This document shows, one piece after another, positions 45,215 through 58,638 of a stretch of DNA of 64,000 nt; the first letter of the stretch is position 1, and each line of letters opens with the position of its first letter. The notes below the pieces were generated by a model that worked only from the letters and a program-made list of their open reading frames with translations, was not told the origin of the DNA and ran no database searches. Position numbers and translations under genes: made by a program. The stretch is from Actinomycetes bacterium. GTDB taxonomy: Bacteria > Actinomycetota > Thermoleophilia > RBG-16-64-13. The stretch is from contig JAGXFW010000013.1 in assembly GCA_024637035.1 (NCBI GenBank), positions 27,203-91,202 on the forward strand, given 5' to 3'.

Positions 45215-45868
45215 CTACGTCCGCACCACGAAGAGCTTGACGATGTCCAGCCAGAGATCGGTCTCGGATTCGACAGTGAGGCCCGCCGCCTCGATGTTCG
45301 TGCGGGTCCGCCGGTCGATGTTGGCGCCCATCATGGGCCGCACCAGAGGACTCAGGGCTCGCATCGCCGGACGGACCACCGGCATGTCGGAGAGGACGTG
45401 CTCGAGGAAGACCGCTTTGCCCGCAGGTCGGAGCACGCGTCGGATCTCCTCGAAGCCCTTCACCGGATCGGGCACGGAGCAGAAGACGAAGGTGGTGACG
45501 ACGGTATCGAACGCGTTGTCGGGGAAGGCGAGCCGCTGGACGTCCATCTCGCGCAGATCGACCTCGGCCCGGGTGTTGTCGGCCAGCGTGCGGGCGTGAC
45601 GCAGCATGCCGGGGCTCAGGTCGACGGCGACTACGCGAGCATCCTGGGGGTAGAACGGGATGTTCTTACCGGTCCCGACGCCCACCTCGAGGATCTCCCG
45701 GCCCTCCGCGAGCGACCACACGCGCTGCCGCCAGGCCTGGAAGGCCCGCCGCTCGGCCGCCCACTCCATGACGTTGTAGTAGCGGGAGAGGCGGTCGTAG
45801 CGTCGACGGGTTTGAGCGGTGGCGTGGTCGCCAGGTCTTTCGTGCATCGCAGGTGAGCCTGTGTTCAT
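45215..45868 (-). CDS. class I SAM-dependent methyltransferase (UbiE-like)
   Basis: 217 residues. SAM-binding motif ILEVGVGTGKNIPFYP, acidic loop VVAVDLSPGML, motif III-type AFDTVVTTFVFCSVPDP and LRPAGKAVFLEHV. Resembles membrane-lipid or quinone methyltransferases. Two ATGs (45868, 45847) are possible starts. Confidence 0.85.
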   Translation of the reverse strand: MNTGSPAMHERPGDHATAQTRRRYDRLSRYYNVMEWAAERRAFQAWRQRVWSLAEGREILEVGVGTGKNIPFYPQDARVVAVDLSPGMLRHARTLADNTRAEVDLREMDVQRLAFPDNAFDTVVTTFVFCSVPDPVKGFEEIRRVLRPAGKAVFLEHVLSDMPVVRPAMRALSPLVRPMMGANIDRRTRTNIEAAGLTVESETDLWLDIVKLFVVRT

Positions 45869-51067: not shown

Positions 51068-51811
51068 CTAGACGGCCAGCGTGCTCCGGCATCCAGGGTA
51101 GGTCGAGCATCCCCAGAAGGGCCCATGACGCCCAGAACGACGAAGCATGGATGAGCCGCAACGGGGGCAGGTAGGCGAAGCGGCTGACGCGGGCTCCGGT
51201 TCCGCCTGGGGATCTGCCGCCGCTACCAGGGGAGGGGGAGCCGGGCTTCCGTGATTCAGGAGTTCCCGAGCCAGCCGGGCGCGACCCCACAATTCGATCC
51301 CGTTGCTCGCCGCCAGACGGACAGCTTGGTCGGTGAAGTCACCGGAGGCGATGACCGCCGCCTTGTCGGCTCGGTAGTGCGCTTTGGCGGCCGCTATCTC
51401 TTGTACAGCCCGGACCCCCACCTTCCGCGTACGCCAGTGCTTGGCCTGGACTGCGGTCTTGGTGCCGTCCCGTTCCAGGATAAGGTCAGCTCCGAAGTCC
51501 GCGCCGTTCGGGGTGAGCGTGATCCGGTAGCCCTTGTCCCGTAGGCGCACCTGTAGGAATTCCTCGAACTGCTCGCCGTTCATGTGGTCCAGATCGCCCA
51601 AACCTGCTGCGTGTAGCCGCGCTTCGCGCTGGCGGCGGAGAAGGTAGAGACCGCCGACCGTCAGCATCAAGACGACGAGGCCCATCAAGAACCCAGCGAG
51701 AAGCGAGTGGTAGCGAAGCCAGCCGTAAGCGAATGCGAAAAGGGTAAGAGCGTACGCCACATCCCCGATGCTCGCCACTTGTCGTTCCCTCTGCTTGCGA
51801 GTCTGCACCAT
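51068..51811 (-). CDS. Mrr-like restriction endonuclease with membrane helices and zinc finger
   Basis: 247 residues: two N-terminal membrane segments, an Mrr-type PD-(D/E)xK domain (MNGEQFEEFLQVRL, NGADFGADLILERDGTKTAVQAKHW, then VGVRAVQEIAAAKAHY), and a C-terminal topoisomerase-type zinc finger (CPRCGSSMLRRSGRHGPFWGCSTYPGC). Catalytic D and QxK are intact. AAGGAGA upstream of the ATG. May cut foreign or methylated DNA at the membrane, or have a non-defence role. Confidence 0.85.
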   Translation of the reverse strand: MVQTRKQRERQVASIGDVAYALTLFAFAYGWLRYHSLLAGFLMGLVVLMLTVGGLYLLRRQREARLHAAGLGDLDHMNGEQFEEFLQVRLRDKGYRITLTPNGADFGADLILERDGTKTAVQAKHWRTRKVGVRAVQEIAAAKAHYRADKAAVIASGDFTDQAVRLAASNGIELWGRARLARELLNHGSPAPPPLVAAADPQAEPEPASAASPTCPRCGSSMLRRSGRHGPFWGCSTYPGCRSTLAV

Positions 51812-53563: not shown

Positions 53564-53597
53564 TAGACTGTTGGCACTCCCTGGCTGAGAGTGCCAG
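53564..53597 (+). promoter_or_regulatory. CIRCE operator (HrcA site) with -10 element
   Basis: TTGGCACTC-N9-GAGTGCCAG at 53571-53597, matching the CIRCE consensus TTAGCACTC-N9-GAGTGCTAA with two compensating changes that keep the arms nearly perfect. TAGACT just before it (53564-53569) may be the -10. CIRCE normally controls groE, dnaK or hrcA; none is in the window, and the next gene is the PhnW-like one 170 bases downstream. Confidence 0.78.
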
Positions 53598-53767
53598 CGA
53601 GAACGTGGGCATGAGTCTCTTTGGCGAGACTCTTCGCCGCCCGCCAAGCTTGCGAAGACTCCGGCACGTATCGGGCCCAGCGCACAGATGCTGCGATGGC
53701 TCACTTCTGCTTTGATCAACCGAAGGCGTCCGTTTGCGAACGCTACGAATGTCAGGACACACATTTC

Positions 53768-54997
53768 ATGGGAAAGCTTCTCCTTTTCACTCCCGGTCCC
53801 GTGAATGTGGCCGACAGCGTGCGGGCCGCCGTCGCTCACGACGACATCTGTCATCGAGAGGTCGATTTTGAACAATTGCTGCGGAGCATTGAAGGCCGGT
53901 TGCTGCGATTGTGGGAAATCAGAGATCATCAGAACTATCAAGCAGTTGTGATTACGGGTTCGGGATCTGCCGCCAACGAGGCGATGCTGTCTTCTGTCGT
54001 TGGAGATCAGAACATCCTCATCGTGTCCAATGGAGAATTTGGTGAGCGGCTCCACGCGCTTTCGAAGATCCACAACAGGAACACGTTTCTGCTGCAGTTT
54101 CCTTGGGGGGAGTCACTCGATCTAGAGGTCATTGACGCCTACCTACAAGACCATCCGATAGATGTCATAGCCTTGGCGCATCATGAGACCAGCTCGGGCA
54201 TGTTGAATCCGCTGGCGGCCATCGGTGCTTTGGCCGAGGCAAACGGGTCGGTGCTGCTGGTCGATTGTGTGAGTAGCGCCGGGGCGGAGGCCATCGATAT
54301 GGAACGCGACAACATAGCGTTCTGCTCATCGTCAAGCTCGAAGGCGATCGGGTCATATCCGGGGTTGTCGTTCGTCGTTGGCAAGGCGGCTGAGTTTGAG
54401 AAGCTCGGATCACTGCCGGTCAAGTCCGGCTATCTGAATCTCTACAAGTTCTATGAGTTTGCAACCGGGCGTTCGCAGACGCCGAATACCCCTGCAGTTG
54501 CGCTCTTCTTTGCCTTGGACCAAGCGTTGGCCAACATCTTGAGCGAAACCGTTGTTGGGCGGCGCGCCAAGATCCTTCGAACAGCGACGACGCTTCGGAA
54601 GGGAATGACGAAACTAGGTCTCACCTTCCTTTTGGACCCCGACGACATGAGCTCGGTCTTGACGACGGTCTACCTGCCTCCCGACGTGGACATCGATCTG
54701 TTGCGTCACGAACTACGTGAGCGATCGATGATCATCTATGAGGGCAAGGGTCCGCTAAAGGGCCGAGTCTTCCAAGTCGGAAGTATCGGTGAGCTCTCCG
54801 AGACTGACGTCCGGAGATTCCTGCGTGTCCTTCGAGATATTCTGAGCGGCTTCCGGGTTGTCGAACCAATAGAACCCACGGTCGTTCTCGGCCTCCTCCC
54901 CGAAACGCGGGCACTGTCCGTGGTTCCGATCTTTGATGGCGGCCAAGGGCTGGCAACCAACAAGGGCTTCGATGAATCGGTAGTGGCGAATGTCTGA
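53768..54997 (+). CDS. PhnW-like class V aminotransferase (2-aminoethylphosphonate type)
   Basis: 409 residues. LLFTPGPVNVADSVR near the start, ITGSGSAANEAMLSS, HHETSSGMLNPLAAIG, the PLP-contact LLVDCVSSAG and PLP-Lys in SSSSSKAIGSYPGLSFV. Order and spacing follow 2-aminoethylphosphonate:pyruvate aminotransferase. With the two genes downstream it likely forms aminoethylphosphonate rather than degrading it. ATG 53768 fits family starts. Codon use is less GC-biased than in the left part, suggesting acquisition. Confidence 0.75.
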   Translation: MGKLLLFTPGPVNVADSVRAAVAHDDICHREVDFEQLLRSIEGRLLRLWEIRDHQNYQAVVITGSGSAANEAMLSSVVGDQNILIVSNGEFGERLHALSKIHNRNTFLLQFPWGESLDLEVIDAYLQDHPIDVIALAHHETSSGMLNPLAAIGALAEANGSVLLVDCVSSAGAEAIDMERDNIAFCSSSSSKAIGSYPGLSFVVGKAAEFEKLGSLPVKSGYLNLYKFYEFATGRSQTPNTPAVALFFALDQALANILSETVVGRRAKILRTATTLRKGMTKLGLTFLLDPDDMSSVLTTVYLPPDVDIDLLRHELRERSMIIYEGKGPLKGRVFQVGSIGELSETDVRRFLRVLRDILSGFRVVEPIEPTVVLGLLPETRALSVVPIFDGGQGLATNKGFDESVVANV

Positions 54998-55103
54998 GGT
55001 CCGTTCCGACGAGTTCAGGCTCCTTCGTCGCCGAACTACGGGGTGTATTGTGACGGGTGTCTTTCCCCACCAGCCGCCTTCGTCGGCCTAACGGCGTCCC
55101 TGC

Positions 55104-55880
55104 ATGAACGACAGAATGTCTCGGTTGTGGGCGACGAAGACTCGCGACGACGAGTGGTGGTCCTCGTTTGTGACTTCCCCACTAGCGATACTCTTCAACT
55201 ACGCCGTGGTTGACATCCGGTGGCTGACGCCGAACCTGGTCACGCTTGCATCATTCGTGACCGCTCTCGTTTCCGCGGCGTTCATCCTTGTAGGCGGTAC
55301 AACGAACTTTGTGATCGCCGCGGGTCTGATTCACCTCAGTCACGTCTTCGATTGCATGGATGGGCAGATGGCCCGTTACCGGAAGACGACCAGCGCCTCG
55401 GGCAGTTACTTCGACCGGGCTACGGATCAGATACAGGTCACGCTCTGGTTCGGTGCGGTCGGCTATGCGGCCTACGACCAGTCAGGGAGTGTTCTCCCCG
55501 TCTTTCTCGCGTTCATCGGTGTGGCCTTCTACTCACTACGTGGTTACGTGAAATACGTCGCGATACACGTGGAGATGTCCCGTGACGCCCGCTACCTGGA
55601 GCGGATGGCCGAGGATGCCTCGGCGGGTGAGGGAGTCGAAGCGGCGAGCCAAGGGTTCGATCTCTGGGCGAGCGTCAGGTGGTTCATCAGTGAGCAGCGC
55701 AAGATTGTTCGCTTCAACGAGGGTGTCTTTATCTTCATGCTCTCGCTGGCGTTGGTGCTGGATCGCCTCACGCCGATGCTTTGGGTCTTTGCGGTGAGTC
55801 AGCTGGGCCACGGCCTCTTCCGAAGCTGGCAGCAGGGGCGGAACATTCATCTCAGCCAACAGATGCGAGTCGAAAAATGA
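55104..55880 (+). CDS. CDP-alcohol phosphatidyltransferase
   Basis: 258 residues, about six membrane helices. The full signature DCMDGQMARYRKTTSASGSYFDRATD fits D-x2-DG-x2-AR-x8-G-x3-D-x3-D, so it should be active. Joins a CDP-activated headgroup to a lipid alcohol, or the reverse. In this operon the activated headgroup is probably CMP-aminoethylphosphonate. ATGA overlap with the next gene. Confidence 0.85.
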   Translation: MNDRMSRLWATKTRDDEWWSSFVTSPLAILFNYAVVDIRWLTPNLVTLASFVTALVSAAFILVGGTTNFVIAAGLIHLSHVFDCMDGQMARYRKTTSASGSYFDRATDQIQVTLWFGAVGYAAYDQSGSVLPVFLAFIGVAFYSLRGYVKYVAIHVEMSRDARYLERMAEDASAGEGVEAASQGFDLWASVRWFISEQRKIVRFNEGVFIFMLSLALVLDRLTPMLWVFAVSQLGHGLFRSWQQGRNIHLSQQMRVEK

Positions 55881-56629
55881 AGACGACACAACGACCAACG
55901 TCCAGTCCCAAGGCGATCATCCTAGCGGCGGGAGTCGGTTCGAGAATCCGTCCCCTGACAGACAACTGCCCGAAGACCCTCTTGACGGTCGGAGGCGTCA
56001 CGATCCTGGAACGGATGCTGACCAGTATTCGTACCTGCGGCATTGATGAGGTCGTTATCGTTCTCGGGTACATGCACGAGCAGGTCGAACTCTTTGTACG
56101 AAATACGTTTCCAGATCTGAACGTACGGTTCGTCATCAATACTCGCTATGACGAGACGAACACGGGGTATTCGTTGATGCTCGCTGCGGATCTAGTCGCA
56201 GGATCGGATTTCGTGAAATTCGACGGTGACGTGGTATTTGCCGAAGAGATCTTGCGCCGGCTGTTGTCTGGTGTCGAAGAGAATCGTCTCTGTATTGACC
56301 GGAACATGCAGCTCGATTCAGAGGAAGTGAAGGTAGTCCTATCCGGCGAATCTCGCGTCGTGCGAGTGAGCAAAGCCGTTCTCCCTGGGGATGCGATCGG
56401 TGAGTCAATCGGCATCGAGAGGATCGGCGTCGACACGGCGGTCCTCCTCTTCGCCGAGCTTCGAGCGATGATGAACGAGGCAGACAATCTCCAGGAGTAC
56501 TACGAGGGAGCGTACGAGCGCCTGATCGCCAGGGACGTTGCGTTCCATGCAGTCGATATCACTGGTTTGGAATGGACTGAGATCGATACTCGGCAAGACT
56601 TTGACGCCGCAGAGAAGATCTTCGGGTAG
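55877..56629 (+). CDS. sugar/aminoalkyl-phosphate nucleotidyltransferase
   Basis: 250 residues. AIILAAGVGSRIRPLTDNCPKTLLTVGG is the NTP-transferase start; FVKFDGDVVF supplies the metal Asp. Resembles phosphocholine or 2-aminoethylphosphonate cytidylyltransferases (compare the PntC fusions, where this domain is joined to a PhnW-like one). Overlaps the previous gene (ATGA). The three genes give transaminase, activation and lipid transfer. Confidence 0.8.
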   Translation: MKTTQRPTSSPKAIILAAGVGSRIRPLTDNCPKTLLTVGGVTILERMLTSIRTCGIDEVVIVLGYMHEQVELFVRNTFPDLNVRFVINTRYDETNTGYSLMLAADLVAGSDFVKFDGDVVFAEEILRRLLSGVEENRLCIDRNMQLDSEEVKVVLSGESRVVRVSKAVLPGDAIGESIGIERIGVDTAVLLFAELRAMMNEADNLQEYYEGAYERLIARDVAFHAVDITGLEWTEIDTRQDFDAAEKIFG

Positions 56630-56824: not shown

Positions 56825-56980
56825 GTCTCCCACGAGCTGCCCGCAAGAATCCGTTCACTTTGGTCTCTGCCTGTAGTGCTTCGTCCACCTTGAGCATGGG
56901 ACGGGGTAGTTGCGGGGCCGGGGTAGAGGTACGAGGTCGGGCTGATTGTCAGGGGAGGGGGAGGGGGTGCCCCCTGCGTA
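56825..56980. repeat. dispersed repeat A, proximal half, copy 4
   Basis: AGCTGCCCGCAAGAATCCG, then ACTTTGGTCTCTGCC and GGGGGAGGGGGTGCCCCC, closest to copy 3. The att core is not visible upstream. Confidence 0.65.
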
Positions 56981-56987
56981 TTCCGGC

Positions 56988-57310
56988 CGAACTGACCACC
57001 CGTTCCGGCCGTAACTGACCAGACGTTACGGCGCAAACTGATCACCGTGTTCGGGCTGAACTGACCAGGGACGGGTCAGAGTCCGGGGCCGCGCTGGTTC
57101 TTCCTGGGGCCAGTGTAGCTCAGACCTCCTTCGTCGACAGCGCCGACGTGCCGTTCGGGCTTTTCGTCTTCCGCATGGACCCTCCCTTCAGGTGGACCTT
57201 GTGGGCGTTGTGGATCAAACGATCGAGGATGGCGTCGGCCAGGGTGGGGTCGGCGATGGCCCCGTGCCACATCTCCATGGGGAGTTGACTCGATGGCTTC
57301 GCCATCATCG
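56988..57310 (-). mobile_element. IS21-family relic: terminal repeats and IstB C-terminus
   Basis: Four CTGACCA/CTGATCA-type units (56990-57070) resemble IS21 multiple terminal repeats. The minus-strand frame 57308-57120 reads [37 protein letters not shown], the end of IstB. No istA is adjacent; an istA start fragment lies at 50854. Confidence 0.75.
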
Positions 57311-57336: not shown

Positions 57337-58638
57337 ATGGGAGCAACGATAGCGGATGCCGTTCTTCAGGCCGGCACGAGCTACGACACCGTCGTCCGCC
57401 CTCGGGTCACGCGCATCCTTGAGTCCTATCCGGGCGCGGTGACGACCTCCGCCTTCTGGAAACTGCTGCACGACGTCGGACCAAAGACCGTGCTCTCTTG
57501 GCGTCACCATGAGAAACCGAACCGGGTGGTCGCCCTGACTGCATTCTTGCGTGAGGCGCACATCGAGACCGAGGTCGAACTCGGGCCTTGGTTGGAAGAC
57601 GAGGCCAATCAGACCAACCTCCTCTCCCTACGCGGCATCGGCCCCAAGACGGTCGACTACCTGAGGATCTTGGCGGGAGCGCAGACCGTCGCTGTCGATC
57701 GCTACGTGTATACGCTCCTCGCAGAAGCAGGCATTCACGTCTCCGGCTATGAGGAGGCCAGGGCGGTCCTGAATCAAACGGCGGATACGTTGGGCGTTCC
57801 CCGGGCGACCCTCGACCACAGCGTATGGCGGTTCATGTCGACGAGGAAGGGCTCTGCCAAGACCAAGACTTCAGCCGCAGGAGACTGCCCGGAGTCGCAG
57901 GGGAGAAGGCACCCGCGCACGGGCCCCGAGCCTTCCGGGCTTGAGGTTCGCAGACAGAACGAGACCATCATGAACTCGGGGATATCAGACGAGGACGTGG
58001 CGGCCGCTCTAGTGCTGGGCCTCGCCTCGCTGAACCGCTCGGGTGTAACGAAGCCCGCCGCCTACCTCCTGCTCGGCGTTCCTCTGTGGGTGGCCGTCTT
58101 GAAGTCCGGCGTACATGCTACACTCGCAGGCGTCGTGGTAGCGATGTTCATTCCGCTGCGCGTGCCGGAGAAGTCGCTCTCGTGGACTGCGCACAGGTCG
58201 CCAGTGCACCACCTGGAACATGCGCTGCATCCGTGGGTGGCCTTTGGAGTCCTGCCCATCTTCGCGTTCACCAACGCGGGTGTCTCCATCCAGGGAGTCT
58301 CGATCTCGGACCTACTCCACCCCGTGCCGCTTGGCATCGTGACTGGGTTGCTTCTCGGGAAGCAGGCAGGGATCATGGCGATGTCCTGGGTAGCGGTGCG
58401 GATGGGGATCGCATCGCTTCCCGCTGGAGTCCGCTGGCCACACATCTACGGCACGTCGTTGCTCTGCGGCATCGGGTTCACGATGAGCCTGTTCATCGCG
58501 TCGCTGGCGTTTGAGCAGGGCGGCGCCGCGTATCTCGGGTTGGAGCGACTCGGCGTCCTGACCGCTTCAGTGCTTGCCGGGCTAACTGGCTACGGCGTGC
58601 TTCGCTTTGGGTTGGGCGACAGGAGAAGGCCCACATGA
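57337..58638 (+). CDS. chimeric ORF: HhH DNA-glycosylase-like domain fused to C-terminal half of NhaA
   Basis: 433 residues. Residues 1-175 resemble HhH-GPD proteins (LLSLRGIGPKTVDYLRILAGAQTVAVDRYVYTLL) without the FeS cluster. After a disordered basic linker, residues from about 222 match the C-terminal half of the Na+/H+ antiporter NhaA (YLLLGVPLWVAVLKSGVHATLAGVVVAM, EHALHPWVAFGVLPIFAFTNAGV, LLCGIGFTMSLFIASLAF). The NhaA N-terminal half with the two essential Asp is missing, so no antiport is expected. Most likely a recombination product kept in frame. Confidence 0.75.
   Translation: MGATIADAVLQAGTSYDTVVRPRVTRILESYPGAVTTSAFWKLLHDVGPKTVLSWRHHEKPNRVVALTAFLREAHIETEVELGPWLEDEANQTNLLSLRGIGPKTVDYLRILAGAQTVAVDRYVYTLLAEAGIHVSGYEEARAVLNQTADTLGVPRATLDHSVWRFMSTRKGSAKTKTSAAGDCPESQGRRHPRTGPEPSGLEVRRQNETIMNSGISDEDVAAALVLGLASLNRSGVTKPAAYLLLGVPLWVAVLKSGVHATLAGVVVAMFIPLRVPEKSLSWTAHRSPVHHLEHALHPWVAFGVLPIFAFTNAGVSIQGVSISDLLHPVPLGIVTGLLLGKQAGIMAMSWVAVRMGIASLPAGVRWPHIYGTSLLCGIGFTMSLFIASLAFEQGGAAYLGLERLGVLTASVLAGLTGYGVLRFGLGDRRRPT

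What the first reader, a model, noticed from the sequence alone, without database searches (positions are those of the whole stretch)
53564..56629. Possible heat-shock-controlled aminoethylphosphonate lipid pathway
A near-perfect CIRCE operator with a -10 box lies upstream of a PhnW-like transaminase, a CDP-alcohol phosphotransferase with a complete signature and a cytidylyltransferase-like protein. The set can form, activate and attach aminoethylphosphonate to a lipid. HrcA control of lipid headgroup synthesis would be unusual. The block has lower GC bias and lies among repeats, so it was probably acquired.
Basis: partly seen in the sequence, partly recalled or inferred. Interest (0 to 1): 0.72.

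Follow-up and report, generated by a model that had tools for sequence, protein, structure and literature searches.

The report
Heat-shock-linked amino-lipid headgroup cassette
A real heat-shock operator sits in front of a mobile three-gene set, found in many unrelated bacteria, that looks built to make and attach an amino headgroup to a lipid; it is almost never accompanied by the enzyme that starts phosphonate synthesis, so the headgroup is probably an ordinary amino-alcohol phosphate.

Summary
Observation confirmed. The CIRCE at 53571-53597 is one base from this genome's own CIRCE (exact at groESL and at a zinc-ribbon gene); about 0.003 such sites are expected by chance in 3.6 Mb, and the genome encodes HrcA. 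The three enzymes are intact. The CDP-alcohol phosphotransferase signature is complete, and the last two genes overlap by 4 bp.

The phosphonate reading is not supported. The 100%-complete genome has no PepM or Ppd. The same ordered triad recurs in more than 70 of 85 loci across many phyla; PepM is absent from the same-phylum cassette genomes tested and present in only 2 of 37 others, unlinked, in reductase-type clusters. The aminotransferase scores below the AEP-transaminase cut-off (302 vs 361 bits; a PepM-linked one scores 416) and has Gln where solved AEP transaminases have Arg. The cytidylyltransferase keeps both amine-pocket acids of PntC/LicC.

New here: the cassette sits beside groESL in 8 loci, in two separate parts of its tree; in a close Chloroflexota relative the order is CIRCE-groES-groEL-cassette.

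Best reading: a horizontally spread, PepM-independent CDP-amino-alcohol lipid cassette, here under HrcA. Substrate, product and regulation are inferred, not shown.

The parts
53564..53569 (+). -10-like hexamer TAGACT, one base before the CIRCE
   Evidence: read in the sequence; 4/6 to TATAAT; no -35 partner found
53571..53597 (.). CIRCE operator (HrcA site)
   Evidence: 1 mismatch to the genome's own CIRCE, 0.0026 expected
53753..53757 (+). possible Shine-Dalgarno CAGGA before the aminotransferase
   Evidence: the ~28 bases before the ATG are conserved with L057 and L059
53768..54997 (+). class-V (AEP-transaminase-like) aminotransferase P0001
   Evidence: TIGR03301 301.8 bits, below cut-off 360.8; closest PDB sequence and fold 6pd1/6pd2; 85 cassette homologues
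55104..55880 (+). CDP-alcohol phosphotransferase P0002, complete signature
   Evidence: PF01066 53 bits; invariant motif in A1
55877..56629 (+). LicC/PntC-like nucleotidyltransferase P0003, 4-bp overlap with P0002
   Evidence: best PDB match LicC 1jyk, also PntC 6pd1; GxGSRx8PK, D116 and E210 retained
56977..57068 (+). 23-bp-spaced degenerate repeats downstream, possible mobile-element end
   Evidence: the repeat finder D1/D2

Best explanation
The locus is a horizontally acquired three-gene cassette. The class-V aminotransferase makes a small primary-amine compound; the LicC/PntC-like enzyme couples the (O-)phosphorylated amine to CMP; the membrane CDP-alcohol phosphotransferase moves the amino-alkyl-phosphate onto a lipid alcohol, giving a phosphatidylethanolamine-like aminophospholipid without phosphonate chemistry. 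In this genome it is transcribed through a CIRCE, so HrcA represses it until chaperonin is titrated by heat or misfolding stress. Shown: sequences, operator, HrcA gene, gene order conservation, absence of PepM/Ppd, retained and altered motifs. Inferred: substrate, product, operon transcription, heat induction.
For: CIRCE matches the genome's own operators and HrcA is present. Ordered triad in most of 85 loci from many phyla: phosphotransferase in 75, cytidylyltransferase in 72, several contigs truncated. No PepM in G000 or in G035, G103, G122, G254, G426; only 2 of 37 further cassette genomes have one, in PepM-Ppd-dehydrogenase clusters elsewhere. Amine-pocket acids of Tde-PntC (E104, E196; PMC6697681) correspond to D116 and E210, invariant in A2. 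FRIG Arg is Gln in at least 95% of 85 members. Some cassettes insert a P-loop protein between the two last genes: uridine-kinase type in L098, unclear AAA_18-type in L067, which would suit an O-phosphate and be needless for a phosphonate. groESL beside the cassette in L057, L099, L100, L107 (fragment), L113, L116, L126 and plasmid L153; no terminator found between groEL and cassette in L057 or L099. No PS decarboxylase in G000.
Against: No CIRCE (<=4 mismatches) directly upstream of the cassette in any other locus; the -35 is missing; the leader to the ATG is 170 nt. The sister species without the cassette also lacks PS decarboxylase, so PE replacement is not required, and most proteobacterial cassette genomes do have it. 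The true substrate is unknown. The nearest family models for the last two proteins include inositol-phosphate enzymes, all far below cut-off.
Confidence: 0.5

Rival explanations
1. Aminoethylphosphonate lipid pathway as first proposed, with the C-P compound imported or made by an unrecognised enzyme.
For: Closest solved structure by sequence and fold is the PntC-AEPT fusion; TIGR03301 is the best family; pepM-ppd-AEPT-NTP transferase-CDP-alcohol transferase clusters are known in Nostoc (PMC5987646).
Against: No PepM or Ppd; PepM missing from nearly all cassette genomes; below-cut-off aminotransferase with Arg to Gln. Imported AEP would not need a transaminase.
Confidence: 0.12
2. The CIRCE is a relic or bystander: the cassette was inserted, or groESL lost, next to a heat-shock operator and is not regulated by HrcA in practice; groESL neighbourhoods are just frequent insertion sites.
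For: Operator not conserved upstream of other cassettes; recent acquisition (GC, absent from the other family members tested); in roseobacters the cassette lies upstream of groESL, not behind its CIRCE.
Against: The site is near perfect and adjacent to a -10-like box; no groES/groEL remnant in the leader; CIRCE-groESL-cassette order in two unrelated lineages (L057; L099/L100).
Confidence: 0.3
3. The product is a soluble phosphodiester (a heat-stress compatible solute, as in di-myo-inositol phosphate synthesis) or a glycan decoration rather than a lipid.
For: Best-scoring models of the cytidylyltransferase and phosphotransferase include the bifunctional inositol-1-phosphate cytidylyltransferase/DIPP synthase; a heat-shock link would fit a thermoprotectant.
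Against: Those scores are far below cut-off (84 of 580 bits; 35.5 of 580); the genome has a separate fused IPCT-DIPPS-like protein on C22; amine-pocket acids are kept.
Confidence: 0.15

Closest known systems
Pnt pathway: PntC-AEPT of Treponema denticola (6pd1/6pd2), PMC6697681
   Same: AEPT-like aminotransferase plus amine-specific cytidylyltransferase; same aminotransferase fold; same pocket acids
   Different: No PepM/Ppd; genes unfused; Gln replaces the FRI Arg; a CDP-alcohol phosphotransferase is a regular part of the set
Phosphonolipid cluster of symbiotic Nostoc and Burkholderia (PMC5987646)
   Same: AEPT, NTP transferase and CDP-alcohol phosphatidyltransferase together
   Different: That cluster contains pepM and ppd; no PepM-Ppd pair was found in the cassette flanks examined here
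Lic pathway, LicC phosphocholine cytidylyltransferase (1jyk)
   Same: Best PDB match of P0003; CDP-activation of a phosphorylated amine
   Different: No LicA kinase or LicD in the set; Glu instead of Asp at the second pocket position, as in PntC
HrcA/CIRCE class I heat-shock regulon
   Same: Operator and repressor as at groESL of this genome
   Different: Target is a lipid-type biosynthetic cassette, not a chaperone

Membership tests
HrcA/CIRCE regulon | CIRCE inverted repeat 9-N9-9 at the promoter | tested here: met
   1 mismatch to the genome's own operator
HrcA/CIRCE regulon | HrcA encoded in the genome | tested here: met
   244.5 bits over cut-off 197.2
HrcA/CIRCE regulon | HrcA binding and heat induction | not testable with these tools
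   needs EMSA and RNA data
Aminoethylphosphonate (Pnt/phosphonolipid) biosynthesis | PepM in the genome | tested here: not met
   TIGR02320 none; PF13714 best 16.4 bits, below cut-off 31.5
Aminoethylphosphonate (Pnt/phosphonolipid) biosynthesis | Ppd in the genome | tested here: not met
   best 28.7 bits vs cut-off 312.5, in a 633-aa frame
AEP transaminase (TIGR03301 PhnW-AepZ) | score over the equivalog cut-off | tested here: not met
   301.8 vs 360.8; other cassette members 255-312; PepM-linked control 416
AEP transaminase (TIGR03301 PhnW-AepZ) | Arg of the C-terminal FRIG motif | tested here: not met
   FQVG in P0001, Gln in at least 95% of cassette members
PntC/LicC cytidylyltransferase | GxG(S/T)RX4-8PK signature | tested here: met
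   G19-V-G21-S-R23 x8 P32-K33, key residues invariant in A2
PntC/LicC cytidylyltransferase | two acidic residues at the amine | tested here: met
   D116 and E210 align with Tde-PntC E104 and E196
CDP-alcohol phosphotransferase | DxxDGxxARx8Gx3Dx3D | tested here: met
   complete and invariant in A1

The most novel reading that the evidence does not exclude
A widely mobile lipid-headgroup cassette that makes a PE-like aminophospholipid by transamination plus CDP activation, without PS decarboxylase or phosphonate chemistry, and that has repeatedly been tied to the chaperonin operon or to HrcA so that membrane headgroup composition changes with protein-folding stress.
Probability: 0.27. Interest if true: 0.78.

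Novelty: new variant of a known kind. Interest (0 to 1): 0.55.

Why it matters
If true, it would show direct coupling of a membrane headgroup pathway to the chaperonin-sensing repressor HrcA, and a route to aminophospholipids independent of PS decarboxylase in lineages that lack that enzyme. It also warns that genes annotated as AEP transaminases in this cassette should not be taken as markers of phosphonate synthesis in marine surveys.

Tried and rejected
Searched for PepM with two families and for Ppd: nothing over cut-off. Searched for PepM/Ppd in cassette flanks: only weak unrelated hits in L077 and L101. Tested groES/groEL remnants between CIRCE and ATG: none. Tested conservation of the CIRCE directly upstream of other cassettes: only the window has it. 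PE-replacement idea tested by PS decarboxylase presence: suggestive in some lineages, not general. Viral contigs: only distant aminotransferase paralogues in apparent glycan gene sets, no cassette. PADLOC and PHROGs: nothing useful. Rfam: no RNA element; 5' leader fold not significant, z -0.85. A K114-for-Asp reading of the cytidylyltransferase pocket, from the ragged end of the LicC alignment, was dropped after the longer PntC alignment. The remaining core CIRCE-like hit (C28) lies inside a long reading frame and lacks the outer bases, so it was treated as chance. Literature search found no description of the PepM-less triad or of lipid genes under CIRCE; only open-licence papers are held.

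Full report
Observation. The CIRCE at 53571-53597 is real. It has three mismatches to the textbook consensus and none were expected in shuffles of the window. The genome's own operators, exact at groES-groEL on C17 and at a zinc-ribbon (PF09723) gene on C26, read TTGGCACTC-N9-GAGTGCCAA; the window site differs from these by one base. From base composition 0.0026 such sites are expected in 3.57 Mb. The genome encodes HrcA over its cut-off. The claimed -10 box (TAGACT, 53564-53569) is there, but no -35 partner was found.

Genes. The three reading frames are intact. The start of the first gene at 53768 is supported because similarity to the nearest relatives begins about 28 bases before that ATG. 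P0002 carries the complete CDP-alcohol phosphotransferase signature. P0003 starts inside the stop codon of P0002 (ATGA), so the two are probably translated together.

Not an AEP pathway as it stands. PepM is absent and Ppd is absent (the weak hits lie in 570-633 aa and 343 aa frames, probably other thiamine-diphosphate enzymes, inference). The same ordered triad was found in G035, G103, G122 and G254, and the aminotransferase, at a contig end, in G426; none has PepM. A genome-contig scan gave 329 relatives, of which 80 were fetched. In these and five more loci the order aminotransferase - phosphotransferase - cytidylyltransferase is nearly invariant. Of 37 further cassette genomes, two (Lucifugimonas and a Magnetococcales bacterium) have a PepM over cut-off. 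The PepM regions fetched show PepM and Ppd with an alcohol-dehydrogenase-like gene and no AEPT, which suggests hydroxyethylphosphonate rather than AEP (inference). Two genomes of the same phylum with a real PepM-Ppd-PntC-AEPT cluster (G298, G356) served as positive controls: the AEPT of G356 scores 416 bits against TIGR03301, cut-off 360.8, while cassette members score 255-312.

Active sites. The solved AEP transaminases aligned have FRI(G/A) near the C terminus; cassette members have FQ(V/I)G. In Tde-PntC, Glu104 and Glu196 face the amine and LicC uses two Asp (PMC6697681). P0003 has D116 and E210 at these places, both invariant in alignment A2. So the cytidylyltransferase looks fit for a small primary amine, while the aminotransferase has probably changed its substrate. 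That the lost Arg binds a substrate anion is my recollection of class-V aminotransferases, not tested here. The AlphaFold model of P0001 (pLDDT 70) has PntC-AEPT as best fold match, as expected for the family.

Clues to the substrate. In some relatives a P-loop protein sits between the phosphotransferase and the cytidylyltransferase: a uridine-kinase-like protein in Bacteroidota (L098, L109, L110) and a weakly matching AAA_18-type protein in Proteobacteria (L067, L072-L074). If these are kinases of the amino alcohol, the activated compound is an O-phosphate, not a phosphonate. G000 and its sister species lack PS decarboxylase, as do the other same-phylum and Chloroflexota cassette genomes tested; most proteobacterial ones have it. 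A PmtA-like methyltransferase lies 8 kb away in the window (90.7 bits, cut-off 390, so only a lead).

Heat-shock link beyond the window. GroEL is among the commonest neighbours. In L057, a Chloroflexota bin with 73% identical aminotransferase, the order is CIRCE-groES-groEL-aminotransferase-phosphotransferase; in L099/L100 (alphaproteobacteria) CIRCE-groES-groEL-full cassette; in roseobacters L113, L116 and L126 the cassette is followed by CIRCE-groESL (L107 keeps a CIRCE and a groEL fragment); on a Sulfitobacter plasmid (L153) the cassette and groESL converge. By a rough estimate fewer than one of about 85 loci should have groEL within this distance. In the tree the window groups with Chloroflexota and Acidimicrobiales members, next to L057, while the other groESL-linked ones lie in an alphaproteobacterial clade. 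No terminator-like site separates groEL from the cassette in L057 or L099. The window may descend from a CIRCE-groESL-cassette arrangement that lost groESL, but no groESL remnant is left, so this is conjecture.

Acquisition. The block has 56.9% GC against 63.7% for the window. It is absent from the other species of the genus and family tested, and only three of 398 other genomes of the class carry such an aminotransferase.

Verdict. Operator and enzymes are as described; the phosphonate conclusion is not supported. The most probable function is a PepM-independent CDP-amino-alcohol route to an aminophospholipid, in this genome probably under HrcA.

Noticed in passing
L002 1498-1524 (G000:C26:185746-185772): A perfect CIRCE stands upstream of a zinc-ribbon (FmdB-like) gene, a second non-chaperone candidate of the HrcA regulon.
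   Followed up: partly
window 45215-45868 (-): PmtA/UbiE-like methyltransferase, best model phospholipid N-methyltransferase but far below cut-off; could act on an aminolipid.
   Followed up: partly
window 57337-58638: Reading frame with an unrelated N-terminal part joined to the C-terminal half of an NhaA antiporter (profile 180-374), suggesting a rearrangement near the cassette's downstream edge.
   Followed up: no
window 51068-51811 (-): Mrr-type restriction endonuclease with topoisomerase zinc finger.
   Followed up: no
window 53612-53631: Perfect 7-bp hairpin GAGTCTC-TTTGGC-GAGACTC in the 5' leader; no T-run after it and overall fold not significant.
   Followed up: partly
L045 7387-8766 (G000:C22): Fused cytidylyltransferase/CDP-alcohol phosphotransferase resembling inositol-phosphate (DIPP-type) enzymes elsewhere in the genome.
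   Followed up: no
L070 5384-7368, L080 6154-8173: Variant cassettes with a different CDP-alcohol phosphotransferase and an ATP-grasp protein between aminotransferase and cytidylyltransferase.
   Followed up: partly
L146-L151 (IMG/VR): Aminotransferase homologues (32-35%) in viral contigs beside glycosyltransferase-like genes, without the rest of the cassette.
   Followed up: partly
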